Of a stretch of 48,866 bases of DNA, positions 14,969 to 30,047 are shown in pieces. The notes under the pieces were generated by a model. The model saw only the letters and a program-made list of their open reading frames with translations, was not told the DNA's origin and did not search any database. Source of the DNA: Muribaculaceae bacterium (GTDB lineage: Bacteria; Bacteroidota; Bacteroidia; Bacteroidales; Muribaculaceae); the NCBI GenBank assembly GCA_017620885.1, contig JAGAUF010000009.1, positions 1 through 48,866 of the forward strand. Reading direction: 5' to 3'. The position numbers were made by a program, and so were the translations under genes. How positions within the stretch are numbered: the stretch's first letter is position 1; each line of letters begins with the position of its first letter.

Positions 14969-15043
14969 CGTATAGGGCGATAGGGGATTAATCTCGTGGG
15001 CGGAATTTATTCCGCAGAAAAAATGCATTTTTTTAGCGAAAAA

Positions 15044-15075
15044 CTTGCACGGGGAGATTTTTGTTATTAACTTTG
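15044..15075 (+). promoter_or_regulatory. Promoter of the tRNA-tuf cluster
   Basis: TAACTTTG at 15068-15075 is a full -7 match; CTTG at 15044-15047, 20 nt upstream, is one base off the -33 consensus. Transcription would start about 55 nt before tRNA-Tyr. Confidence 0.65.
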
Positions 15076-15135
15076 CACTCGATTTCGGTTTTGAGGCCGG
15101 GCAGCGGTCCGACATACTCATCCGGGGTCAATTAG

Positions 15136-15218
15136 GGGCGAATACCAGAGTGGCCAAATGGGGCAGACTGTAAATCTGCTGGTTTATACCTTCGGTGGTT
15201 CGAATCCATCTTCGCCCA
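15136..15218 (+). tRNA. tRNA-Tyr (GTA)
   Basis: Class II tRNA of 83 nt. Acceptor GGGCGAA/TTCGCCC, anticodon stem GCAGA/TCTGC with loop CTGTAAA (anticodon GTA), a long variable arm, and T arm GGTTCGAATCC. The 3' CCA is not encoded (ACA follows). Confidence 0.96.
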
Positions 15219-15226
15219 CACAAATT

Positions 15227-15299
15227 GCGGAAGTAGCTCAGTTGGTAGAGCATCAGCCTTCCAAGCTGAGGGTCGCGAGTTCGAACCTCGTCTTCCGCT
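15227..15299 (+). tRNA. tRNA-Gly (TCC)
   Basis: 73 nt, acceptor GCGGAAG/CTTCCGC, D arm GCTC/GAGC, anticodon stem TCAGC/GCTGA with loop CTTCCAA (TCC), T stem GCGAG/CTCGT with one G-U pair. CCA is not encoded. It lies 8 nt after tRNA-Tyr. Confidence 0.96.
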
Positions 15300-15308
15300 C
15301 TTTTTCTT

Positions 15309-15380
<72 letters not shown>

Positions 15381-15406
15381 CAAAATGGTGAATATCCTGT
15401 CGCGGT

Positions 15407-15433
15407 AAGCCGGCTTATCTTTGCTGGCTTTTT
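15407..15433 (+). terminator. Hairpin with T-run between tRNA-Thr and tuf
   Basis: AAGCCGGC pairs with GCTGGCTT (one G-T pair) and is followed directly by TTT. It may set the ratio of tRNA to tuf transcripts, since I find no clear full promoter between it and tuf (61 nt). Confidence 0.55.
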
Positions 15434-15494
15434 GCGGTAAAGAATAGCCGCCGTCAATGTGAAATAATTTAATCAAAATAACAGTAGCAAAATT

Positions 15495-16682
15495 ATGGCT
15501 AAAGAAAAATTCGAAAGAACCAAACCGCACGTGAACATCGGTACGATCGGTCACGTCGACCACGGTAAGACTACTCTTACTGCTGCTATCACCAAAGTGC
15601 TTGCTGAAAAAGGTCTTTCTGAAGCTCGTTCATTCGATTCTATCGACAACGCTCCTGAAGAGAAAGAGCGTGGTATTACTATTAATACCGCTCACGTAGA
15701 GTATGAAACTGCTAACCGTCACTACGCTCACGTAGACTGCCCGGGACACGCCGACTATGTAAAGAACATGGTAACTGGTGCTGCTCAGATGGACGGTGCT
15801 ATCATCGTTGTGGCTGCTACCGACGGTCCGATGCCTCAGACTCGCGAGCACATCCTTCTCGCTCGTCAGGTGAACGTTCCGCGTCTGGTTGTCTTCATGA
15901 ACAAGTGTGACATGGTAGACGACGAAGAGATGCTCGAACTCGTTGAGATGGATATGCGTGATCTCCTTTCACAGTACGAATACGATGGTGACGAGACTCC
16001 TATCATCCGTGGTTCCGCACTCGGCGCTCTTAACGGAGAACCGCAGTGGGTAGAGAAAGTTATGGAGCTTATGGATGCTGTTGGTACTTGGATTCCGCTG
16101 CCTCCGCGTGACATTGATAAACCGTTCATCATGCCGGTTGAGGACGTCTTCTCAATCACTGGTCGTGGTACTGTTGCCACCGGCCGTATCGAAGCTGGTA
16201 TCGTTAAGGTAGGTGACGAAGTTCAGATCCTCGGTCTTGGTGCTGACCGCAAGTCGGTTGTTACCGGTGTCGAGATGTTCCGTAAGATCCTCGATGAGGG
16301 TGAGGCTGGTGATAACGTAGGTCTGCTCCTCCGTGGTATCGACAAGAACGAAGTTCGTCGTGGTATGGTAATCTGCCACCCGGGTCAGGTTAAGCCTCAC
16401 GATCACTTCAAGGCTCAGGTTTATATCCTGAAGAAAGAAGAGGGTGGTCGTCACACTCCGTTCCACAACAAATATCGTCCTCAGTTCTACATCCGTACGC
16501 TTGACGTAACCGGTGAGATCACTCTCCCCGAGGGTATCAAGATGGTAATGCCGGGCGACAATGTAGAGATCGATGTTAAGCTCATCACTCCCGTTGCTTG
16601 CGATCAGGGTCTTCGCTTCGCTATCCGTGAAGGTGGCCGTACGGTTGGTTCCGGTCAGATCACATCCGTTATCGACGATTAA
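15495..16682 (+). CDS. tuf: Elongation factor Tu
   Basis: EF-Tu carries aminoacyl-tRNA to the ribosome as a GTP complex. The 395-aa product has G1 GHVDHGKT (19-26), the switch I sequence [18 protein letters not shown]3 DCPGH, and G4 NKCD in [15 protein letters not shown]. Beta-barrel domains 2 and 3 follow ([29 protein letters not shown]) and it ends [11 protein letters not shown]. Codon use is strongly biased, as expected for a highly expressed gene. It sits in the classical tRNA-tuf-tRNA-secE arrangement. Confidence 0.99.
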
Positions 16683-16749
16683 TTTGCCTCTTGTGGCATA
16701 AATGTTCCGCTTAAGCTTAGGCTGACGGGACAGACAAAATAAAAAAAGA

Positions 16750-16777
16750 GGGGCTTTCCGCCTGAGTGGAAAGCCCC
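16750..16777 (-). terminator. Strong hairpin after tuf, oriented as a minus-strand terminator
   Basis: GGGGCTTTCC and GGAAAGCCCC form a perfect 10-bp stem with an 8-nt loop. On the plus strand no T-run follows and tRNA-Trp begins 5 nt later. On the minus strand the hairpin is followed by CTCTTTTTTTATTTT, a good terminator tail. It would stop antisense transcription entering tuf, or act as an mRNA/tRNA processing structure in the sense direction. Confidence 0.6.
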
Positions 16778-16782
16778 GACAT

Positions 16783-16858
16783 ACGGGAATAGCTCAGTCG
16801 GTAGAGCACTGGTCTCCAAAACCAGGTGTCGGGAGTTCGAGCCTCTCTTCCCGTGCCA
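16783..16858 (+). tRNA. tRNA-Trp (CCA), with encoded 3' CCA
   Basis: Acceptor ACGGGAA/TTCCCGT with discriminator G, D arm GCTC/GAGC, anticodon stem CTGGT/ACCAG with loop CTCCAAA (CCA), T stem GGGAG/CTCTC. Positions 16856-16858 read CCA, unlike the three upstream tRNAs. It sits 12 nt before secE. Confidence 0.95.
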
Positions 16859-16870
16859 ATTGAAATAAAT

Positions 16871-17062
16871 ATGAAGTTAATAAAGGACATAAAGGAATCT
16901 TATACCGAATTGGTATACAAGGTTTCTTGGCCGACTCAGAAGCAACTTGTCAATAGCTCGGTGTTGGTGCTGATCGCTTCCATCATCATCGCTGTATTCA
17001 TCTGGGCTGTCGATAAGGTATTCGATCTTCTTATGGAGTTGGTCTACAGTATACAGTTTTAA
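16871..17062 (+). CDS. secE: Preprotein translocase subunit SecE
   Basis: SecE clamps SecY in the inner-membrane secretion channel. The 63-aa single-span form has the conserved amphipathic KDIKESYTELVYKVSWPTQKQ followed by a membrane helix (about 29-47, VLVLIASIIIAVFIWAVDK). The start at 16871 (MKLIKDIKESY) is chosen because the upstream ATG at 16826 lies inside tRNA-Trp. It precedes nusG by 22 nt, the near-universal order. Confidence 0.95.
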   Translation: MKLIKDIKESYTELVYKVSWPTQKQLVNSSVLVLIASIIIAVFIWAVDKVFDLLMELVYSIQF

Positions 17063-17084
17063 CTTTTAAAGCAGGTAACAACCA

Positions 17085-17636
17085 ATGGCTGAGAAGAATA
17101 AAGGATGGTACGTTTTGCGTGCCATATCAGGCAAGGAAGCGAAGGTCAAGGAGATGCTTGATGCTGCAATCAAGAATACTCATCTTGGCGATTACGTTTC
17201 ACAAGTGTTGATACCCACAGAGAAGGTTTATACTACGCGCAATGGCAAGAAAGTCATAAAGGAGCGCAATTTGTATAGCGGCTACGTATTTATCGAAGCC
17301 GTTCTCACCGGAGAGGTGATATATGAATTGCGCAATATGACAAATGTCATTGATTTTTTACGCGGTCGCGAGAAGGGTAGTATGCCGGAGCGCCTTCGTG
17401 AGACGGAGGTTATGCGGATGCTCGGACAGCTCGACGATATGCGTAATGCTGTGGACGATGAGACCGAAGAATTTATTGTCGGTGAACCGGTGAAGGTGAC
17501 CTTCGGGCCTTTCAGTGGATTCAGTGGCACGATTAAAGAGGTCAACAACGAGAAAAAGAAGTTGAAAGTCGAGGTCAAGATTTTTGGTCGTGGCACCGAC
17601 TTGGAGTTGGAAAATTCCCAAGTGGAAAGAGAGTGA
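17085..17636 (+). CDS. nusG: Transcription termination/antitermination factor NusG
   Basis: NusG binds RNA polymerase and links it to Rho or the ribosome. The 183-aa product has the NGN domain (WYVLRAISGKEAKVKEMLDA; ERNLYSGYVFIEA) and a C-terminal KOW domain (VGEPVKVTFGPFSGFSGTIK). There is no large insertion, so it is the housekeeping NusG rather than an UpxY-like capsule paralog. It lies 59 nt before rplK. Confidence 0.97.
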   Translation: MAEKNKGWYVLRAISGKEAKVKEMLDAAIKNTHLGDYVSQVLIPTEKVYTTRNGKKVIKERNLYSGYVFIEAVLTGEVIYELRNMTNVIDFLRGREKGSMPERLRETEVMRMLGQLDDMRNAVDDETEEFIVGEPVKVTFGPFSGFSGTIKEVNNEKKKLKVEVKIFGRGTDLELENSQVERE

Positions 17637-17695
17637 GATGCGTGATGTTACGCGCGTATTGAGCTCAGGAGATCAAACTTTTAAAGAAAACAAGA

Positions 17696-18139
17696 ATGGC
17701 TAAAGAAATTGCTGGACAGATCAAATTGCAGATTAAAGGCGGGGCAGCAAACCCCTCGCCGCCGGTAGGACCCGCTCTGGGTTCTAAGGGTATCAATATC
17801 ATGGAATTTTGCAAGCAATTTAATGCCCGCACCCAGGACAAGGCAGGTAAGGTACTTCCGGTTGTAATTTCATATTACACCGATAAGTCTTTCGATTTCA
17901 TCGTAAAGACGCCTCCTGTAGCAGTTCAGCTCAAAGAGGTTGCAAAGCTCAAGAGCGGTTCTGCTCAGCCTAACCGTGACAAGGTAGCTGAGATTACTTG
18001 GGAGCAGGTAAAGACAATTGCCGAGGACAAAATGCCTGATTTGAACTGTTTTACTTTAGACTCGGCTATGCGTATGGTAGCCGGCACAGCGAGAAGTATG
18101 GGTATCACCGTCAAAGGGGCGTTCCCCGAAAATAACTAA
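17696..18139 (+). CDS. rplK: 50S ribosomal protein L11
   Basis: 147 aa, with the family signatures [20 protein letters not shown] and [19 protein letters not shown] at the N-terminus and the rRNA-binding C-terminal domain ending [16 protein letters not shown]11 forms the GTPase-associated centre with 23S rRNA. rplA starts 15 nt downstream. Confidence 0.98.
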
Positions 18140-18154
18140 TAAACTTCAATTGAA

Positions 18155-18850
18155 ATGAGTAAACTGACAAAAAATCAAAAGTTGGCTTTGTCGAAGATTG
18201 AAGCTAATAAGGCCTATACGCTTGCAGAGGCTTGTGAGAAAGTGAAAGAAATCACTTTCACCAAGTTTGACGCATCGTTAGACATTGACGTCCGTCTTGG
18301 CGTGGATCCTCGTAAAGCTAATCAGATGGTACGTGGCGTAGTTTCGCTGCCTCACGGAACGGGTAAGCAGGTACGTGTACTTGTGCTCTGCGGTTCCGAT
18401 GCTGAGGCTGCCGCAAAGGAAGCAGGTGCCGATTACGTTGGTCTTGACGAATACCTTGAGAAGATCAAGGGTGGATGGACTGATGTAGACGTAATCATCA
18501 CTCAGCCTTCCGTAATGGGTAAGCTTGGTCCTTTGGGTCGTATTCTCGGTCCCCGTGGCCTTATGCCTAACCCGAAGAGCGGTACGGTAACTATGGACGT
18601 AGCTAAAGCTGTAAAAGAAGTAAAGCAGGGTAAGATTGACTTCAAGGTAGATAAAACCGGTATTGTACACGCATCGATTGGCAAGGTATCGTTCACTCCT
18701 GCCCAGATGACTGACAATGCACGTGAATTTATCAATACACTGATCAAGCTTAAACCGGCTACTGCCAAAGGTACATATATCAAGAGCATTTATCTTTCGA
18801 GCACGATGAGCCCCGGCGTAAAAGTCGAGACCAAGTCAGTGTCTGAATAA
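18155..18850 (+). CDS. rplA: 50S ribosomal protein L1
   Basis: 231 aa, full length. It shows [20 protein letters not shown], the hinge region [20 protein letters not shown] and the C-terminal [21 protein letters not shown]1 forms the mobile stalk near the E site and represses its own operon in many bacteria. It lies 23 nt before rplJ. Confidence 0.98.
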
Positions 18851-18873
18851 TCAATTAAACGACTGAAAAGACA

Positions 18874-19392
18874 ATGAAAAAGGAAGATAAAGCACTTATT
18901 ATAGATATGATTGGTAAGACGCTTGCTGAATACAGCTGCGTATATCTTACCCAGACGGCCGGACTGAATGCCGAGAAGACGAGCGCGCTTCGTCGTGCCT
19001 GCTTCAAGGATGAGATCAAGATGCTTTGCGTGAAGAACACCCTTCTTAAGAAGGCTCTCGAAGCAAGCGAGATTGACTATTCAGAGCTGTATGATCTTCT
19101 TCACGGTGAAACGACGCTGCTTCTGAGCAACACCGGAAACGCACCCGCGAAGCTCATCAAGAAATTCCGTGACAAGAACAGCACGCTTCCGATTCTGAAA
19201 GGTGCATACGTCGAGGAAACTGTATATGTTGGCGAAGAGAATTTGGAGACGCTCGCCAATATCAAGAGCAAGAGCGAACTTATCGGCGATGTTATCACAT
19301 TGCTGCAGTCGCCTGCTAAGAACGTCATCAGCGCACTCAAGAGTGGTGGCAACACGATTCACGGTGTTCTTGAGACTCTCTCCAAACGATAA
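18874..19392 (+). CDS. rplJ: 50S ribosomal protein L10
   Basis: 172 aa, anchoring the L7/L12 stalk. The N-terminal rRNA-binding domain has KEDKALIIDMIGKTLAEYSC and ALRRACFKDEIKMLCVKNTL. The C-terminal helix that binds L12 dimers is IGDVITLLQSPAKNVISALK. rplL follows after 38 nt of A-rich spacer. Confidence 0.97.
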   Translation: MKKEDKALIIDMIGKTLAEYSCVYLTQTAGLNAEKTSALRRACFKDEIKMLCVKNTLLKKALEASEIDYSELYDLLHGETTLLLSNTGNAPAKLIKKFRDKNSTLPILKGAYVEETVYVGEENLETLANIKSKSELIGDVITLLQSPAKNVISALKSGGNTIHGVLETLSKR

Positions 19393-19430
19393 TCAACTAA
19401 AATTAAAAACAAAAAAAACAAATACACAAA

Positions 19431-19805
19431 ATGGCAGATTTGAAAGCATTTGCAGATCAATTGGTTAATCTCACTGTAAAGGAAGTTAACGAACTGGCAC
19501 AGATCCTCAAAGACGAGTACGGCATTGAGCCGGCCGCAGCAGCAGTAGCAGTAGCAGGTCCCGCAGCAGGCGGTGCAGCTGCAGCTGAGGAGAAGACTGA
19601 GTTTGACGTAATCCTCAAGGCTCCCGGCGCAAGCAAGCTCGCTGTCGTGAAACTTGTTAAGGAACTCACCGGCCTTGGCCTGAAAGAGGCTAAAGAGCTC
19701 GTTGACAACGCACCCAGCCCCATCAAGGAAGGCCTTCCGAAGGCTGACGCTGAGGGCCTGAAGAAGCAGCTCGAAGATGCTGGTGCTGAGGTTGAACTCA
19801 AGTAA
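19431..19805 (+). CDS. rplL: 50S ribosomal protein L7/L12
   Basis: 124 aa. The N-terminal dimer/L10-binding helix pair is followed by an Ala-rich hinge ([20 protein letters not shown]) and the factor-binding C-terminal domain [20 protein letters not shown], ending DAGAEVELK. The hinge is encoded by a GCA/GCT-rich run. The gene is followed by the unusual 1,033-nt spacer before rpoB. Confidence 0.98.
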
Positions 19806-19827
19806 GAATCCGTAAGGAAAAAATATC

Positions 19828-19872
19828 GGTTAAGGACGGCATTGTTGAGGCAATGCGCGTTCTTAACCTTTT
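19828..19872 (+). terminator. Attenuator hairpin between rplL and rpoB
   Basis: GGTTAAG (19828-19834) pairs with CTTAACC (19862-19868), continued inward by ACG/CGT and GCATTG/CAATGC (small internal loops), followed by TTTTCC. It lies 23 nt after rplL. By analogy with the E. coli rplL-rpoB attenuator it could let only part of transcription continue into rpoBC. Confidence 0.65.
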
Positions 19873-19952
19873 CCAATTTCCGGCTGACAACGGGGGCACC
19901 GTTCGCGAATCAGTAACGGTAGCTATGAGTCAGATGCCGGTTTGCTAAAATT

Positions 19953-20008
19953 TATGATAGCTTCGGGGAGAATAGGGTCGTGTGAATCCCACTCCGGTCG
20001 TTATCATA
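19953..20008 (+). promoter_or_regulatory. Second hairpin in the rplL-rpoB spacer
   Basis: TATGATA (19953-19959) pairs with TATCATA (20002-20008); inside, GGAG/CTCC and GGG/CCC can stack. It is not followed by a T-run, so a processing site or protein-binding structure is more likely than termination. Its role is unknown. Confidence 0.4.
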
Positions 20009-20168
20009 TTTTGGTATGAAATCCCTTCTAATGGCAACGTTGAGGGTTGGGGTATTGATTTTTGGGTGAAGATGGATTTATGTCGAGCATAGATACGTAA
20101 AAGTTATTTAATGACTTTTGTGATTGTTTAAGATATTTAAGCACGATATTTGCATAGGGGACGGTATA

Positions 20169-20196
20169 ATGATCAGACGCGCATAGATGATCAGAC
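20169..20196 (+). repeat. Direct repeat ATGATCAGAC, two copies 18 bp apart
   Basis: Exact 10-nt copies at 20169-20178 and 20187-20196, each containing the palindrome TGATCA. The 18-bp period is not an exact helical multiple. It could be a protein site or chance. Confidence 0.4.
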
Positions 20197-20326
20197 TACA
20201 TACAATTTGAAAATATTAGTCAGGCGACTGCTTCATGCGATGAGGTGGTGGCATTTTTGTGGCTCTATCCGGAAGCAGGTTCATATTAGGGTGAAGACGT
20301 GCGGAGGTAAGAAATAAAGGAGTCGC

Positions 20327-20677
20327 GGATAAAGGGTAGAATGGGAGAGAGAAAATGGGAAGAGGTTTAGAGGTATTGGGTGAAGAGCATTTGAGGATAA
20401 GAGGGAGAGAGGATGAAGATTAGGGAAGGATAGGATATAGAGGATTTGGAGAGGAATAAGTATGGGTGAAAGAGGATTTTGAGGATATAGGGAAGAATGG
20501 GAGAGAGTTAAGAGAATTGGGGAAGAGATTTAAAGGATTTGGGGAGAAAGTTAGAGAATCGGGTGAAGAGGATTTGAGGATATAGGGAGATAATAAGGAT
20601 TGTGGAAGGACATAAAGGATTTGGGAAGAGATTTTAGGATAAGGGGGAGAAGAGATTTAGGGATAAGGAAAAAGAGA
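20327..20677 (+). repeat. Cytosine-depleted, G/A-rich repetitive tract upstream of rpoB
   Basis: In 351 nt the plus strand has only three C (20388, 20560, 20611), and 20389-20559 is 171 nt with none. The tract carries a degenerate unit of about 28-30 nt (GGGTGAAGAGGATTTGAGG.. then ATATAGGGA) at about 20378, 20464 and 20561, that is 86 and 97 nt apart; shorter motifs such as AAAGGATTTGGG and AGAATGGGAGAGAG also recur. No protein frame is apparent. An RNA from it can form almost no G-C pairs. Its role is unknown. Confidence 0.85.
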
Positions 20678-20755
20678 CAATAATGAATGGGATTCTGAAG
20701 TAGAATCGATGAGTTGCCTGAACGTGTAGTGGCTGGTAATGTGGCGATTATGCCG

Positions 20756-20786
20756 CACCGGTCCGGAGATGATAAGCGGACAGGTG
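20756..20786 (+). promoter_or_regulatory. GC-rich hairpin 53 nt before rpoB
   Basis: CACC (20756-20759) with GGTG (20783-20786) and GTCCG (20761-20765) with CGGAC (20777-20781), one mismatch between them, 11-nt loop. It ends the unstructured tract and stands just before the rpoB translation start region. Confidence 0.4.
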
Positions 20787-20838
20787 ATTTGTAGAGGCTA
20801 TTGATGGAGACCAAAGAACATAGAAATAAAGAATCGCA

Positions 20839-23800
20839 ATGTCAAAGAACGTACCCGAAAAGCCGCGCGTGAGCTTTGCGTCGATAAAAAATCCGCTGCC
20901 GTTTCCGGATTTTCTTGAGATACAGTTGAAGTCATTCCATGACTTTTTGCAGCTCGATACGCCTCCAGAGAACAGAAAGAACGAGGGTTTGTATAAGGTA
21001 TTTGCCGAGAATTTCCCGATTGCAGATACCAGAAATAACTTCGTACTGGAGTTTTTGGATTATTATATAGATCCACCGCGTTATAGCACTGACGAGTGTT
21101 TGGAGCGTGGACTGACCTACAGTGTGCCGCTGAAAGCGAAGCTTAAACTTTATTGCACGGATCCGGATCACGAAGATTTTGACACAGTAATTCAGGATGT
21201 ATATCTGGGAGCAATCCCTTATATGACGGAGCAAGGCACGTTTATCATTAACGGTGCTGAGCGTGTAGTAGTTTCGCAGTTGCACCGTTCACCGGGTGTA
21301 TTCTTCGGTCAGAGCATCCATGCTAATGGCACGAAGCTGTATTCGGCGCGTATCATTCCGTTCCGTGGCAGCTGGATTGAGTTTGCCACCGACATTAACA
21401 ATGTCATGTATGCATATATCGACCGCAAGAAGAAGCTTCCTGTAACTACGCTTCTGCGTGCTATCGGTCTTGCAAGTGACAATGACATCAATGAAGTATT
21501 TGATATCGCTGATGAGATCAAGGTCAATAAGACGAATCTCAAGAAGTCGATTGGCCGCAAGCTGGCTACAGCTATCCGCAGCATCTGGTATGAGGATCAG
21601 GTGGATCAGGATACCGGTGAGGTGAATCAGATCGAGCGTTCGGATGATATTGCGAAGCGTGGAGATGAAATCACGGAAGAACTTATTCCTACGATTATCG
21701 AGAGCGGTGTGAAGACTATTCTTCTCGAAAAGGAGAACGTCAGCACGTCGGATTACAGCATCATCTTCAATACGCTTCAGAAAGATATGTCGTCGACGGA
21801 GAAGGAAGCCGTCAATGAGATCTATCGACAGCTGCGCAACGCGGAGCCGCCAGATGATGCGTCTGCTCGCGAGGTAATCACGAATCTTTTCTTCTCGGAG
21901 AAGAGATACGACCTTGGCGAGGTAGGCCGTTATCGTATCAATAAGAAGCTGAATCTTGACACTTCGATGGATGTCCGCGTATTGACGCGCGAGGATATTG
22001 TTGAAATCATCAAGTATCTCATCGAGCTTATTAATGCGAAGAGCGACGTGGACGATATCGACCACTTGAGCAATCGTCGCGTGCGCACGGTAGGTGAGCA
22101 GCTCTACAATCAGTTTGGAGTCGGCTTGGCTCGTATGTCCCGTACAATTCGTGAGCGAATGAATGTGCGTGACAACGAGGTGTTTACGCCTATCGATCTT
22201 ATCAATGCGAAGACGATTTCGTCGGTTATCAATACCTTCTTCGGTACGAACGCCTTGTCGCAGTTCATGGACCAGACCAACCCTCTGGCCGAGATCACAC
22301 ACAAGCGCCGTATGTCTGCGTTAGGCCCCGGCGGTCTGTCGCGTGAGCGTGCAGGATTTGAGGTGCGCGACGTTCACTATACGCACTATGGTCGTCTTTG
22401 CCCGATTGAGACGCCGGAAGGTCCTAACATCGGTCTGATTTCGTCGCTTTGTGTATATGCGAAAATCAATAATCTCGGCTTCATCGAGACTCCTTACCGC
22501 AAGGTAGAAAACGGCAAGGTGGACCTCAACAATGACGAGGTAATCTACCTGACAGCCGAACTTGAAGAGGGTAAGACTATCGCTCAGGGTAACGCTCCTC
22601 TGAACGATGACGGCACCTTTATCCGCAACAAGGTAAAGGCTCGTATGGACGCCGATTTCCCGTTGGCAGCTCCTGAAGATATTGAGCTGATGGACGTGGC
22701 TCCTATTCAGATTGCGTCGATAGCCGCATCGCTTATCCCGTTCCTTGAGCACGATGACGCTAACCGTGCGTTGATGGGTTCAAACATGATGCGTCAGGCA
22801 GTTCCGTTGCTTCGCAGCGAGGCTCCTATCGTCGGTACCGGTATTGAGGGTCAGTTGATAAAGGATTCTCGTACGCAGATCACTGCCGAGGGACCGGGCG
22901 TAATTGAATTTGTGGATGCCACTGTTATCCGCATCCGCTATGACCGTACGGAGGATGAAGAATTTGTATCCTTCGAGTCTCCGGTCAAGGAATACAAGAT
23001 TCCCAAATTCCGTCGTACGAACCAGAGCACGACAATCGACCTTCGTCCTATCTGTAACAAGGGAGACCGTGTGGAGAAGGGAGATATTCTTACGGAAGGT
23101 TATTCTACCGAGAAGGGCGAGCTTGCTCTCGGACGCAATTTGAAGGTGGCATTTATGCCATGGAAAGGTTACAACTATGAGGACGCCATCGTGCTCAACG
23201 AGCGCATGGTGAGAGAGGATATTCTGACCTCAGTCCACGTAGACGAATATACGCTTGAGGTGCGCGAGACTAAGCGCGGTATGGAGGAGCTGACTTCGGA
23301 TATTCCGAATGTGAGCGAAGATGCCACGAAGGATCTCGACGAGCGCGGTATCATCCGTGTCGGTGCGCATGTAGTTCCAGGCGATATTATGATCGGTAAG
23401 ATCACGCCGAAAGGTGAGAGCGATCCGACGCCGGAGGAGAAACTTCTGCGCGCCATCTTCGGCGACAAGGCCGGCGATGTGAAGGATGCGTCGCTGAAGG
23501 CGTCTCCGTCGCTGAAAGGTGTTGTAATCGGCACGAATCTTTTCTCACGTGCGGTGAAGAAGAAAGGTGGCAAAAACAGCACGAACAACGAGCTTGCCGA
23601 GCTTGATGCAAGATACGAGGTACAGCAGGAAGAACTTAAAGCCGTTATGGTCAATAAGATGGCCACCTTGCTCCAGACGTATAAATCGGAAGGCGTTAAG
23701 GATTTCATCGGCGTAGACATCATCCCGAAGGGTAAGATGTTCAGCGAGGTGAACTTCGGCTCGATAGATTATGAGACCATCAATGTAGGCGGCTGGACTG

Positions 23801-24654
23801 ACGACGAGCGTATCAACGGTATGATAGGTCATCTTATCACGAATTATCTGCGCAAGTCGAAAGAGATCGACAGCGAGCTTCGCCGTAAGAAATTCGATAT
23901 CACGATTGGCGACGAGCTTCCGTCGGGCATTATGCAGATGGCGAAGGTATATATAGCCAAGAAGCGTAAGATCGGTGTCGGTGACAAGATGGCCGGCCGT
24001 CACGGTAACAAGGGTATTGTATCGCGCGTCGTAAGACAGGAGGATATGCCGTTCCTTGAAGACGGAACTCCGGTGGATATTGTACTGAACCCTCTGGGTG
24101 TGCCGTCGCGTATGAACCTTGGTCAGATATTCGAGACCGTATTGGGATGGGCCGGCCGTGAGCTTGGCGAGAAATTCGCTACTCCTATCTTCGACGGCGC
24201 ATCGATGGACGATATGAATATGTGGACCGACAAGGCAGGCCTGCCTCGTTATGGCAAGACCTATCTGTATGATGGCGGAACCGGAGACCGCTTCGACCAG
24301 CCTGCTACGGTAGGTGTGATTTACATGCTTAAGCTCGGTCACATGGTCGAGGATAAGATGCACGCCCGCTCGATAGGTCCGTACTCATTGATTACGCAGC
24401 AGCCGTTGGGTGGTAAGGCACAGTTTGGTGGTCAGCGTTTCGGAGAGATGGAGGTATGGGCGCTCGAAGCATTCGGTGCTGCGCATATTCTTCAGGAGAT
24501 TCTGACCGTCAAGTCGGATGACGTAATGGGCCGAAGCAAGGCGTATGAGGCTATCGTGAAAGGCGAGCCCATGCCGACGCCCGGAATGCCGGAGTCGTTA
24601 AATGTGCTTCTGCATGAGCTTCGCGGACTTGGTTTGAGCATTACGCTCGATTAA
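20839..24654 (+). CDS. rpoB: DNA-directed RNA polymerase subunit beta
   Basis: 1,271 aa, a usual Bacteroidota length. Recognisable parts are the start [20 protein letters not shown], the rifampicin-pocket region [20 protein letters not shown] and [20 protein letters not shown], the active-site lobe [37 protein letters not shown], and the C-terminal [20 protein letters not shown]. In the pocket I see the common sensitive residues (Q-MDQ, H-KRR, S-ALG). The gene is 26 nt before rpoC and on one transcript with it. Confidence 0.99.
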
Positions 24655-24680
24655 ACGAAAACAAAAGAAGGAAAACAGAA

Positions 24681-27600
24681 ATGGCTTTTAGAAGAGAAAA
24701 CAAAATAAAAAGCAATTTTTCGAAGATAACGATAGGACTTGCGTCTCCGGAGGAAATAAAAGAGAAGTCGAGCGGTGAGGTATTGAAGCCCGAGACGATC
24801 AATTATCGCACGTATAAGCCGGAGCGCGACGGATTGTTCTGTGAGAAGATCTTCGGCCCGGTGAAGGATTATGAATGTCATTGCGGTAAGTATAAGCGTA
24901 TCCGTTACAAGGGTATCGTCTGCGACCGTTGTGGCGTCGAGGTAACAGAGAAGAAGGTTCGCCGTGAGCGTATGGGCCATATAGAGCTTGTAGTTCCGGT
25001 AGCCCACATCTGGTATTTCCGTTCGCTTCCGAATAAGATCGGTTATCTTCTCGGATTACCGTCGAAGAAGCTTGACGCCGTGATTTATTACGAGCGTTAC
25101 GTTGTAATCAATCCGGGTGCGGCTGCGGATCTTGACATTGTCAAGGAGCGCGGAGGACTGGAGAAACTCGATCTTCTGACTGAGGATGAGTATCTGGCCA
25201 TTATCGACAATCTCCCGGCAGGCAACGAGCTTCTTCCCGACGATGATCCCAATAAATTCATCGCTAAGATGGGTGCCGAGGCCATCTATGATTTGCTTTG
25301 CAACATAGATCTTCGTGCATTGGCAGCTGAGCTTCGCGACCGTGCCGAGAAGGATGGTTCGCAGCAGCGCAAGACGGAGGCCTTGAAGCGTCTTCAGGTT
25401 GTGAATAGCTTCCTGAATTCAGCAGGTCGCAACAAGCCCGAATGGATGATTCTTAAGGCTGTGCCGGTTATTCCGCCGGAGCTTCGTCCTTTGGTACCGC
25501 TGGATGGTGGTCGTTTCGCTACGTCGGATATCAACGACCTTTATCGTCGCGTAATTATCCGTAACAATCGTCTGAAACGTCTTATAGAGATTCAGGCTCC
25601 GGAGGTGATTCTCCGCAATGAGAAGCGTCTTCTTCAGGAGGCTGTAGACTCCCTTTTGGATAACAGCCGTAAATCGTCGGCAGTGAAGAGCGACGTCAAT
25701 CGTCCGCTGAAATCACTTTCCGACTCGCTGAAAGGAAAGCAGGGACGTTTCCGTCAGAACTTGCTTGGTAAACGTGTGGATTACAGTGCACGTTCAGTAA
25801 TCGTGGTAGGTCCTGAGCTGAAGATGCACGAGTGCGGTATTCCGAAGCTTATGGCAGCGGAATTATACAAGCCGTTCATTATCCGTAAGCTGATAGAGCG
25901 CGGTATCGTTAAGACGGTTAAGAGTGCGAAGAAGATCGTAGACCGCAAGGAGCCGGTAGTTTGGGATATCCTTGAATATGTGATGAAGGGTCATCCCGTG
26001 CTGCTGAACCGTGCCCCGACACTTCACCGTCTCGGTATTCAGGCATTCCAGCCGAAGATGATCGAGGGTAAGGCAATTCAACTTCACCCGCTTGCATGTA
26101 CGGCATTCAACGCCGACTTTGACGGTGACCAGATGGCAGTTCACTTGCCGCTGGGCAACGAGGCTATCCTTGAGGCTCAGATGCTGATGCTCGGTGCACA
26201 CAATATCCTTAACCCTGCCAATGGCGCACCTATTACCGTGCCGTCGCAGGATATGGTTCTCGGCCTGTATTACATCACTAAGCTCCGCAAGGGCGACAAG
26301 GGTGAGGGCTCGGTATTCTACGGACCTGAAGAGGCTGAGATCGCATACAATGAGGGTCGCGTGACGCTCCATGCACCTGTGACAATACTTGTAGAAGATA
26401 AGGACGAGAACGGCAATACTGTCAAAGTCCTGAAGAAAGATACTTCCGTAGGTCGCGTACTCTTCAATCAGTACGTGCCTGAGGAAATCGGCTACGTCAA
26501 TGAGATTATCTCTAAGAAGTCGCTCCGCGTGATTATCGGTAAGGTAATCAAGGCTTGTGGTGTGACCCGTTCGGCGCAGTTCCTTGACGACATCAAGAAC
26601 CTCGGATACAAGATGGCATTCCGTGGCGGTCTGTCGTTCAACCTCGGTGATGTGATTATCCCGAAGGAGAAGGAGGAATACGTAGCAGAGGGATACGCTC
26701 AGGTAGAGGAAGTGATGCAGAACTATCAGTTGGGTCTCATCACGGGTAACGAGCGCTACAATCAGGTGATTGATATATGGACGCACGTGAATTCCAAGCT
26801 TGCCTCAACGCTTATGAAGCAGATGGCAGAAGACCAGCAGGGCTTCAATTCCGTCTACATGATGCTTGACTCGGGAGCTCGTGGTTCAAAGGACCAGATC
26901 CGTCAGTTGTCGGGTATGCGTGGTCTTATGGCGAAGCCGCAGAAGAGTGGTGCCGAGGGTGGTCAGATCATCGAGAACCCGATTCTTGCGAACTTCAAGG
27001 AGGGTCTTTCGGTGCTTGAGTACTTCATCTCGACGCACGGTGCCCGTAAGGGTCTTGCCGATACCGCACTTAAGACGGCGGACGCCGGTTATCTGACGCG
27101 TCGTCTTGTAGACGTAGCGCACGACGTGATTATTACAGAGGAGGATTGCGGCACGCTCCGCGGCCTTGTCTGCACAGAGATAAAGAATAAGGAAGAGGTT
27201 GTGGCCACGCTTAGCGAGCGAATCCTCGGCCGAGTATCAGTTCACGACATCTACAACCCTGAGAATGAGGACGAGCTTATCGTAGCCGCCGGTGAAGAGA
27301 TTACCGAGGCTATCGCAGAGAGAATCGAGAAACTTCCGATAGAATCGGTAGAAATCCGTTCGGTTCTTACGTGCGAGGCGAAGAAGGGCGTTTGTGCGAA
27401 ATGTTACGGTCGTAACCTGTCCAACCACCGTATGGTGCAGAAGGGTGAGGCTGTCGGCGTAATTGCAGCACAGTCGATTGGTGAGCCGGGTACTCAGCTT
27501 ACTCTTCGTACATTCCACGTCGGTGGTGTTGCCGGTAACGTCGCAGCTGTAAAGGACGTAACGTCGCGCTATGATGGAAAACTTGAAATCGACGAGCTTC

Positions 27601-29075
27601 GTACAGTCAAAACCGAAGACGGTGGCGAGATCGTAGTAGGGCGTATGGCCGAGATGCGTATAGTCGCACCTAAGACCGGTGCAATCCTTACGTCAGCCAA
27701 CATACCTTACGGTTCGCGACTATTCTTCCACGACGGTGATATGGTCAAGAATGGCGATATGATCTGCGAGTGGGACCCGTTCAACGCCGTAATCGTGACG
27801 GAAGAGGGTGGTAAAGTAAGATTCGAGAACGTGGAAGAAGGCGTTACGTATCGCGTTGAAGTCGATGAAGCGACCGGTATGCGCGAGAAGATTATGATCG
27901 AATCGAAGGATCGTACGAAAGTTCCTGCTGTCGAGCTTATCGACAAGGACGGTAACATAATCCGTACGTATTCACTTCCTGTAGGCGCACACCTTCTGAT
28001 AGATGAAGGTGAGATGCTGACTCCGGGTACAATTGTTGCGAAGATTCCGCGTGCGTCGGGTAACGCCGGTGACATCACGGGTGGTCTGCCGCGAGTAACC
28101 GAGCTGTTCGAGGCCCGTAATCCGTCGAACCCTGCAGTGGTAAGCGAGATCGACGGTGAGGTTAAGTTTGGCAAGATCAAGCGTGGTAACCGCGAAATCA
28201 GCGTAACGTCGAAACTCGGTGAGGAGAAGAAATATCTCGTGCCGTTGGCCAAGCAGATTCTTGTTCAGGAGAATGACTACGTCAGAGCCGGCACACCTCT
28301 GTCGGACGGTGCAATTACACCGAGCGACATTCTGAATATCAAGGGCCCCACGGCAGTTCAGGAGTATATCGTCAATGAAGTTCAGGACGTTTACCGTATG
28401 CAGGGCGTTAAGATCAATGACAAGCACTTTGAGGTTATCGTACGTCAGATGATGCGTAAGGTGAATATCATTGATCCGGGCGATACCCGCTTCCTTGAGC
28501 AGCAGGTGGTAGACAAGCGTGACTTCATGGAGGAGAACGACAACATCTGGGGCAAGAAATATATTATCGACTCGGGCGACAGCCAGACGTATAAGGCCGG
28601 TATGATCATTACTCTGCGCAAGCTGAGAGATGAGAACAGCTCGCTGAAACGTAAGGACCTCAAGACGATGACGGTGCGCGATGCAGTACCGGCAACATCG
28701 GAACAGATTCTGCAAGGTATCACGCGTGCTGCACTTCAGACGTCGAGCTTTATGTCGGCAGCATCGTTCCAAGAGACAACGAAGGTGCTGAATGAGGCTG
28801 CTATCAACGGAAAGACAGACTATCTCGAAGGAATGAAGGAGAACGTGATTTGCGGTCACTTGATTCCCGCAGGTACGGGTCTTCGTGAGTACGATAAGCT
28901 GATTGTTGCCAATTACGAGGAGTATGAGGCATTGCGCAGAGAGGAATCTGCATCAGATGTTGTTGAGGCGGAGGCCGTAGAAATCCTGAAAGAGGAGGAA
29001 AAGACGGTCAATCCGCTTACAACTGAGGAAGTAATCGCAGAGATAGACGGCGATGCAGAGAAGCCTGAGGCTTGA
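24681..29075 (+). CDS. rpoC: DNA-directed RNA polymerase subunit beta'
   Basis: 1,464 aa. The N-terminal zinc site [20 protein letters not shown], clamp motif [20 protein letters not shown], catalytic loop [12 protein letters not shown], trigger loop region ([20 protein letters not shown]) and second zinc site [16 protein letters not shown] are all present. The C-terminal extension after about residue 1,400 is acidic ([20 protein letters not shown]). It is preceded by an A-rich start region (AAAACAAAAGAAGGAAAAC) and followed by a strong terminator. Confidence 0.99.
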
Positions 29076-29100
29076 TGCGTTTCCGGATAAATAGATAAAT

Positions 29101-29139
29101 GAGAGGGGCAGTGGTAATGAACGACTGCCTCTCTTTTTT
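29101..29139 (+). terminator. Terminator of the rpoBC operon
   Basis: GAGAGGGGCAGT pairs with ACTGCC-TCTC (one offset G) and is followed by TTTTTT. It closes the ribosomal protein/RNA polymerase operon. Confidence 0.9.
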
Positions 29140-29228
29140 ACTGTCCTACCTTTTTAATGAGAGAGGAGGACGAATTTAATGTGAGATTGGAGGGAGATAA
29201 TTTTGGAAGAAGAATGATTGGAAAAAAG

Positions 29229-30047
29229 ATGAAGAGAATAATTGTCTTATTTACGGTATTGGTCGGGATGCTCGGTTGCGGCAATGCGACTGCCGAGACG
29301 TTTGACTGGCTGAGAGCGGCGCAGGGAGCAGTAAAGGTTTATCAGTCGTATAGCCTGAGCGACGCGGACGTGCGCAATTATGTGGCTCAATATATCAAGC
29401 AGCTTGACGCGCAGAGCAAGGTTGCGCCGGCCAATAGCCCGTATACGATTCGTTTGAAAAAACTGACGAAGGGGCTGACGTCGGTCAATGGCGTTCCGTT
29501 GAATTTCAAGGTTTATATGACTAAGGAGGTGAACGCTTTTGCGTGTGCGGACGGCAGTGTGCGTGTATATTCCGGTCTGATGGATCTGATGAGCGACGAT
29601 GAGATTTTGGGCGTTATCGGCCATGAGATCGGCCACGTGGCGAACAATGACACACGCGACGCGATGAAGGCAGCGCTGAAGACGTCGGCGTTGCGCGATG
29701 CATTGAGTGCCGGCTCGGGCTGGGTTGCAGCGCTGTCGGATTCGCAGTTTGGCGCGCTTGGCGAGACGCTGATGAATTCGAGCTACAGCAAGAAGCAGGA
29801 GAGCGCAGCTGACGACTACGGATATAATTTTCTAAAGAAAGCGGGGAAGAATCCGTGGGCGATGGCGCAGGCCTTTACGAAGCTGAAATCGCTTTCTGGG
29901 AGCAGCAATCAGAGTCGATTGAGTTCGGCGTTGAATGGTCTTTTCAGTGATCACCCGTCGACGGATAAGCGTATTAAGGCGATGGAGAAGAAGGCTCGCA
30001 AGGATGGTTTTGCTGTTCCGAGCGGCTATACTCCGATGACGAAATAA
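29229..30047 (+). CDS. M48-family metalloprotease, lipoprotein
   Basis: The start at 29229 gives MKRIIVLFTVLVGMLGC, a lipobox (MLGC, Cys17); an in-frame ATG at 29157 would spoil the signal peptide. The 272-aa product has the zinc motif HEIGH (132-136) in ILGVIGHEIGHVANN and the third ligand Glu191 in QESAADDYGYN, the layout of BepA/LoiP/YcaL-like periplasmic M48 proteases that act on outer-membrane protein quality. All catalytic residues are intact. It is first in a run of three lipoprotein genes. Confidence 0.9.
   Translation: MKRIIVLFTVLVGMLGCGNATAETFDWLRAAQGAVKVYQSYSLSDADVRNYVAQYIKQLDAQSKVAPANSPYTIRLKKLTKGLTSVNGVPLNFKVYMTKEVNAFACADGSVRVYSGLMDLMSDDEILGVIGHEIGHVANNDTRDAMKAALKTSALRDALSAGSGWVAALSDSQFGALGETLMNSSYSKKQESAADDYGYNFLKKAGKNPWAMAQAFTKLKSLSGSSNQSRLSSALNGLFSDHPSTDKRIKAMEKKARKDGFAVPSGYTPMTK

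What the first reader, a model, noticed from the sequence alone, without database searches (positions are those of the whole stretch)
20327..20677. A 351-nt stretch with almost no cytosine in the rplL-rpoB spacer
Seen: three C in 351 nt of the plus strand, including 171 nt (20389-20559) with none, next to a highly expressed operon; the window as a whole is about half G+C. Inference: RNA from it cannot fold by G-C pairs, and it is the reverse of a rut site (Rho prefers C-rich, G-poor RNA). Loss of C may let a 1-kb untranslated spacer escape Rho-dependent polarity before rpoB. The G-rich nontemplate strand might also form R-loops.
Basis: partly seen in the sequence, partly recalled or inferred. 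Interest (0 to 1): 0.78.

Follow-up and report, generated by a model that had tools for sequence, protein, structure and literature searches.

The report
Cytosine-free tandem repeat before rpoB
A gut-type bacterium carries, just ahead of a core RNA polymerase gene, a worn tandem repeat whose short unit happens to contain no cytosine; this explains the odd composition, and it may also leave the untranslated RNA out of reach of the terminator protein Rho.

Summary
In detail: 3 C in 351 nt, 171 nt of it free of C. The tract is not one that lost cytosine. It is a degenerate head-to-tail array of about 16 copies of a C-free 21-nt unit, GGGAAGAGATTTAGAGGATTT, which aligns over 349 of 351 nt at 83% identity; 59 sampled 500-nt pieces elsewhere in the window score at most 37 against 304. 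One C-free founder plus duplication accounts for the composition. It lies in the inferred ~680-nt leader of rpoB, downstream of a terminator hairpin behind rplL and of a promoter-like block identical in one sister species. None of 89 complete same-genus spacers has the tract. The two sister species carry other repeat units, upstream of their promoter-like blocks, and another pair differs by about two copies of a 23-nt repeat. Selection against C within the array is not shown (p = 0.11).

The parts
19431..19805 (+). rplL (ribosomal protein L7/L12)
   Evidence: ORF list; rplL matches in relatives
19828..19872 (+). terminator-like hairpin behind rplL (stem 19828-19868, then TTTT)
   Evidence: 19815-19880 folds with -29.3 kcal/mol, z -7.27; similar stems followed by T open the relatives' spacers printed (read by eye)
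20123..20154 (+). promoter-like block of rpoB: ATTG (20123-20126), 18 nt, GATATTTG (20145-20152); GCACGATATTTGCA (20141-20154) is identical in sister species G067, only similar in G087
   Evidence: the TAnnTTTG/TTTG consensus is from PMC7366714 (passages); one mismatch in each element; inferred, no TSS data
20159..20838 (+). inferred rpoB 5' leader, about 680 nt
   Evidence: inference from the promoter-like block; composition C 0.08, G 0.35
20327..20677 (+). C-poor tract: degenerate tandem array of about 16 copies of GGGAAGAGATTTAGAGGATTT (21 nt); best-preserved copies about 20357-20690
20690..20838 (+). folded 3' part of the leader, up to the rpoB start
   Evidence: -44.3 kcal/mol, z -3.43, 1 of 200 shuffles as stable; no Rfam match
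20839..24654 (+). rpoB
   Evidence: 93 of 111 same-genus genomes, its own included, have the N-terminal 200 aa

Best explanation
The tract is a degenerate, species-specific minisatellite in the 5' leader of rpoB. A roughly 21-nt sequence without cytosine was duplicated head to tail about 16 times by slippage or unequal exchange. The copies then diverged by substitutions and small indels, so the whole stretch inherited the founder's lack of C. The spacer between the rplL terminator and the rpoB start is free to grow in this genus, and different species carry different repeat units there. As RNA the array is an unstructured, purine-rich (79% A+G) linker that offers Rho no C-rich landing site, so it should not stop polymerase before rpoB. 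Shown: the array and its unit, its absence from the relatives read, other units in sister species, copy-number change in another pair. Inferred: the promoter and leader, the duplication mechanism, neutrality of the array towards expression.
For: A 21-nt unit aligned in wrap-around fashion covers 349 of 351 nt: 83% identity, 42 indels, 15.7 copies, score 304. With one random-seed procedure for both, the tract scores 261 against 165-213 in 25 dinucleotide shuffles. 59 sampled 500-nt pieces of the window score at most 37 with the unit. TRF finds periods 21 and 43 in it. Window, G067 and G087 form one clade (support 100/99; the run warns that bootstrap values are rough); G067 has a 34-nt unit x 6.9 and G087 an 18-nt unit x 14.1 in the same spacer, both containing C. 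G078 has a 9-nt unit x 7 and G086 a 41-nt unit x 4. G063 and G097, 97% identical over the region aligned, differ by a 47-nt indel next to a 23-nt repeat. 0 of 89 other complete genus spacers has a C-free run over 40 nt.
Against: TRF reports only 161 of the 351 nt as an array, and autocorrelation at 22 nt is modest (z 3.3). The 21-nt unit was found by eye and then tested; a 44-nt unit scores slightly higher (322) and 22- and 24-nt units nearly the same (292, 307), so the founding length is not settled. Only 2 of 57 changes are to C; not significant (p = 0.11) but it leaves room for selection. No second strain of this species was available, so copy-number change was not seen in this array itself.
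Confidence: 0.8

Rival explanations
1. Rho-proof leader under selection. The array, however it arose, is kept free of C because any C-rich stretch in a ~680-nt untranslated leader would recruit Rho and cut rpoB expression; only C-free or C-poor founders can expand downstream of the promoter.
For: 0 of 603 windows of the leader have C>G. Seven long leaders (280 nt or more: window, G067, G087, G034, G030, G004, G078) together have 99 of 3310 such windows, against 142 of 454 in eight shorter leaders, 531 of 3739 in this rpoB and 657 of 4318 in rpoC. C-containing arrays lie upstream of the promoter-like block in G067 and G087, in G063 and, by eye, in G086; this C-free one and the C-poor one of G078 (1 C in 9; block assigned by eye) lie downstream. 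Rho is encoded. In B. subtilis purine-rich RNA escapes Rho (PMC13323073).
Against: Promoters were assigned from sequence, partly by eye, in 16 spacers that I picked, not in the whole set; one of them (leader 72 nt) is too short for a window. The seven long leaders come from one weakly supported 14-row clade (83/78), not seven independent cases. G067 and G087 do have C>G windows in their leaders (77 of 542, 22 of 815). The part of this spacer upstream of the promoter has none either (0 of 158). Genes of this genome are only 51.6% purine, below the 54% the paper gives for B. subtilis. Changes to C are not significantly rare.
Confidence: 0.25
2. R-loop or G-quadruplex element: the G-rich nontemplate strand and purine-rich RNA form a persistent hybrid or G4 that tunes transcription.
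For: 16 runs of three or more G in the tract, G 40%, nearly no C on the nontemplate strand.
Against: G4-like starts are no more than in 100 shuffles (13 against mean 13.5 for two-tetrad, 0 against 1.5 for three-tetrad). No relative read keeps such a tract. No DRIP data.
Confidence: 0.07
3. Antisense Rho trap: read from the other strand the tract is a 351-nt C-rich, nearly G-free RNA (C139, G3) that would terminate antisense transcription coming from rpoB.
For: Composition of the complement; PMC13323073 reports that pyrimidine-rich antisense RNA is suppressed by Rho.
Against: It follows automatically from the sense composition. Antisense transcription was not examined beyond the mechanical promoter scan (4 sites, all on the minus strand, against a shuffled mean of 2.2).
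Confidence: 0.08
4. Mutational origin: strand-specific cytosine deamination in a heavily transcribed region removed C.
For: C is missing on the nontemplate strand only.
Against: Deamination would turn C into T, but T is only 20% and purines are 79%; the repeat unit itself has no C.
Confidence: 0.02

Closest known systems
Bacterial minisatellites / VNTR loci in intergenic regions (family name recalled; MLVA papers seen in the listing)
   Same: Head-to-tail copies of a unit of tens of bases, intergenic, unit differs between species, length changes between near relatives of the genus
   Different: Old and degenerate (83% identity with many indels), inside the inferred leader of an essential gene, and without C
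BrickBuilt minisatellite-MITE of Porphyromonas gingivalis (PMC4596501, passages including parts of the abstract)
   Same: 23-nt tandem unit, intergenic, same order Bacteroidales (order recalled)
   Different: BrickBuilt has small inverted-repeat ends and several genomic copies; the spacer here occurs once in its genome, and no inverted repeat was reported in it (a scan that also missed the rplL hairpin)
Purine bias of transcripts as Rho avoidance (Dierksheide et al. 2026, PMC13323073)
   Same: Purine-rich, C-poor sense RNA; complement is pyrimidine-rich
   Different: That work concerns bacterial genes, mainly of Bacilli; 'bacteroid' has 0 hits in its text; here one leader array, and genes of this genome are not strongly purine-biased
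rplL-rpoB attenuator region of E. coli (recalled)
   Same: A hairpin between rplL and rpoB partly separates ribosomal from polymerase gene expression
   Different: Here rpoB has its own promoter-like block and a long inferred leader

Membership tests
Intergenic minisatellite | Several head-to-tail copies of one unit of about 10-100 bp | tested here: met
   15.7 copies of 21 nt at 83% identity over 349 of 351 nt; shuffles and sampled window pieces lower
Intergenic minisatellite | Copy number varies between strains of the species | not testable with these tools
   One genome per species held; a length change was seen only in another pair of the genus
MITE-borne minisatellite (BrickBuilt type) | Inverted-repeat ends | tested here: inconclusive
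   0 inverted pairs, but that scan (seed 9) also missed the rplL hairpin, so short or imperfect ends could be missed
MITE-borne minisatellite (BrickBuilt type) | Several genomic copies | tested here: not met
   The spacer matches only itself at E<=0.001 in its own genome; the best other own-genome match is 20 nt, E 0.22
Rho-avoiding purine-rich transcript | No stretch with C in excess of G | tested here: met
   0 of 603 78-nt windows of the leader; 150-nt C-G at most -19
Rho-avoiding purine-rich transcript | Strong purine bias across the genes of the genome | tested here: not met
   51.6% purine in script-called ORFs of 150 aa or more in the sampled stretches (547,922 nt)
Rho-avoiding purine-rich transcript | Expression depends on the composition when Rho is active | not testable with these tools
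   Needs reporter and bicyclomycin experiments
Known structured leader RNA (Rfam) | Match to a family covariance model | tested here: not met
   No match between rplL and rpoB at E<=1 (15000-30000); none at E<=0.1 in eight loci
R-loop forming region | RNase H-sensitive RNA-DNA hybrid in vivo | not testable with these tools
   Only G clustering seen

The most novel reading that the evidence does not exclude
The rpoB leader of this clade is a place where repeats may expand only if they are free of, or very poor in, C: the promoter divides the spacer into an upstream half where arrays of any composition are tolerated and a transcribed half where Rho filters every founder, so that the array is a Rho-proof spacer whose length tunes rpoB.
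Probability: 0.2. Interest if true: 0.6.

Novelty: new member of a known kind. Interest (0 to 1): 0.35.

Why it matters
It shows how an extreme base composition can come from repeat expansion rather than from base-by-base selection, which should be ruled out before composition is read as function. If the Rho filter is real, repeat arrays upstream and downstream of mapped promoters in these gut bacteria would give a natural test of how Rho shapes untranslated RNA outside the Bacilli.

Tried and rejected
G-run periodicity of 7.4 nt (power 3.49 against a 95th percentile of 2.03 in 100 shuffles) was first read as a possible binding register; it is about one third of the 22-nt period and I take it as part of the repeat.

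A 26-nt match of 20755-20780 to many genus genomes falls in a coding region that I take, from memory, to be secA on the other strand; rejected as chance.

Selection against C inside the array, tested on changes from the unit: 2 of 57 to C, against 9 of 71 in the arrays of G067 (6 of 22), G087 (0 of 37), G078 (1 of 9) and G086 (2 of 3), p = 0.11; not accepted. Copies are not independent, so even this p is rough.

A genome-wide G>C bias of long leaders: 24 of 38 co-directional spacers of 250 nt or more are G>C (p = 0.14). The tail is lopsided (of 68 of 150 nt or more, 20 have skew 0.2 or more and 3 have -0.2 or less; convergent 6 and 2 of 20, divergent 2 and 2 of 23), but replication strand was not controlled. 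ORFs were called by a simple script, not by a gene finder.

A profile search of own-genome stretches with the repeat unit (nhmmer) printed no rows, not even the tract itself, so it probably failed; not used.

G087 also has two short TRF calls (2.1 and 2.3 copies) downstream of its promoter-like block; not followed.

Paper searches. No title or abstract beginning listed there describes a C-free rpoB leader; this is a statement about those five listings only. PMC13269538, PMC7366714 and PMC4596501: passages only. PMC13323073: abstract, passages and sections 7, 8, 10 and 24. Other listed papers: listing only.

Full report
WHAT IS THERE. The tract is as described: 3 C in 351 nt (20327-20677), 171 nt without C (20389-20559), while the next C-free run of the window is 74 nt. 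In 499,056 nt of the same genome (40 of 118 contigs) no other C-free or G-free run exceeds 75 nt. It lies between rplL (19431-19805) and rpoB (20839-24654). The genome, held without a name, belongs with Muribaculaceae-like Bacteroidales: the nearest named L10 proteins (86%) are from uncultured Muribaculaceae, Bacteroidales and Porphyromonadaceae assemblies (best 80 kept).

IT IS A TANDEM REPEAT. TRF reports periods 21 and 43 and the repeat finder six families of direct repeats in the spacer. A wrap-around alignment to GGGAAGAGATTTAGAGGATTT covers 349 of 351 nt: 329 aligned positions, 83% identity, 42 indels, 15.7 copies, score 304. Units of 22, 24 and 44 nt give 292, 307 and 322. With random seeds the tract scores 261 and 25 dinucleotide shuffles score 165-213. 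Fifty-nine sampled 500-nt pieces of the window score at most 37 with the unit. When the whole spacer is offered, the alignment drifts outward to 20040-20810 for only 29 extra points, through poor copies with C; I do not count these as array. The unit has no C. A random 21-mer lacks C with probability about 0.5 to 1.6% at C = 0.226 to 0.18, so one founder plus duplication makes an otherwise near-impossible tract unremarkable.

THE SPACER TURNS OVER BY REPEATS. Of 111 same-genus genomes 93, its own included, have the rpoB N-terminus. I read 89 complete spacers other than the window's (two of them from one genome, G109): median 290 nt, longest C-free run 40 nt. The sister species G067 and G087 fall outside the 89 because no full rplL match lay in the first stretch fetched; the longest C-free runs there are 29 and 33 nt. 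In 78 of 80 named loci, which partly overlap that set, the longest is 32 nt. On a tree of 93 rows (600 columns, bootstrap not settled) the window, G067 and G087 form a clade (100/99). G067 carries a 34-nt unit x 6.9, G087 an 18-nt unit x 14.1. Both units contain C and both arrays lie upstream of the promoter-like block. G078 has a 9-nt unit x 7, G086 a 41-nt unit x 4. G063 and G097 differ by 47 nt, about two copies of a 23-nt unit.

WHERE IT SITS. A hairpin of -29.3 kcal/mol (z -7.27) followed by TTTT ends the rplL unit. The block GCACGATATTTGCA (20141-20154) is identical in G067, where the rest of the spacer hardly aligns (E = 0.015 for the block); in G087 the matching block is only similar and is no BLAST hit. 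It resembles the Bacteroides promoter (TTTG, then TAnnTTTG; PMC7366714, passages) with a mismatch in each element. The leader would run from about 20159 to 20838, about 680 nt; that paper gives a median 5' UTR of 32 nt for B. thetaiotaomicron. The array RNA is nearly unfolded; the last 149 nt before rpoB fold well (z -3.43).

RHO. Rho is encoded. I counted 78-nt windows with more C than G: this leader 0 of 603, G067 77 of 542, G087 22 of 815, G034 0 of 411, G030 0 of 272, G004 0 of 462, G078 0 of 205; together 99 of 3310. Nine shorter leaders were also cut out: eight give 142 of 454 and one is too short for a window; rpoB has 531 of 3739 and rpoC 657 of 4318. These 16 spacers are those in which I could point to a promoter-like block, partly by eye. 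The trend fits the rule that exposed RNA avoids C excess, shown for B. subtilis in PMC13323073. Against it: the seven long leaders belong to one weakly supported clade; the untranscribed part of this spacer also lacks C>G windows (0 of 158); genes here are only 51.6% purine; and changes to C within the array are not significantly rare (2 of 57 against 9 of 71, p = 0.11). Arrays that contain C lie upstream of the block in G067, G087, G063 and, by eye, G086; this C-free array and the C-poor one of G078 lie downstream. Rho evasion is therefore a likely property and an unproven cause.

VERDICT. A real, striking feature with an ordinary origin: a worn, C-free minisatellite in the rpoB leader. What remains open is whether Rho decides which repeats may live downstream of the promoter.

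Noticed in passing
L004, L008, L011, L015, L020, L021, L119, L192, within about 120 nt before rpoB: A conserved leader RNA (GACYGR..., TCAGACG, TCGAG) in another clade of the genus: 8 sequences, 18 predicted pairs, 8 with changes on both sides; no Rfam match at E<=0.1 in L004, L008 and L015, the three of the eight scanned. It may be an rpoB autoregulation element.
   Followed up: partly
rplL-rpoB spacers of L031, L042, L114, L115, L118, L120, L121, L122, L124 and others: Another recurrent element with CTTGTCATG (22 of the spacers in hand, the named and genus sets overlapping) and a stem ending TCTGAAAAT before TTTGTGT (22). No Rfam match in L031 and L114.
   Followed up: partly
L003, L005, L134 (rpoB leaders of 349-539 nt): Long leaders share GCATCCGA...TCATCGTTTTGAG-like or TCGTCGTTTTGG-like stretches behind a TAACTTTG promoter-like box.
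   Followed up: no
L134 (G004), rplL-rpoB spacer of 1839 nt: An ORF-like insert lies between rplL and the rpoB promoter-like box; by eye it looks like a carboxymuconolactone decarboxylase/cupin-type gene (recalled, not searched).
   Followed up: no
window 20690-20838: The part of the leader next to rpoB folds better than 199 of 200 shuffles (z -3.43) without an Rfam match.
   Followed up: no
L164 2377-3020 and 16191-17213, L172 15111-15414: Other long co-directional spacers of the same genome with strong G>C on the sense strand (skew 0.36-0.43); L164 2416-2509 holds a 19-nt tandem repeat.
   Followed up: no
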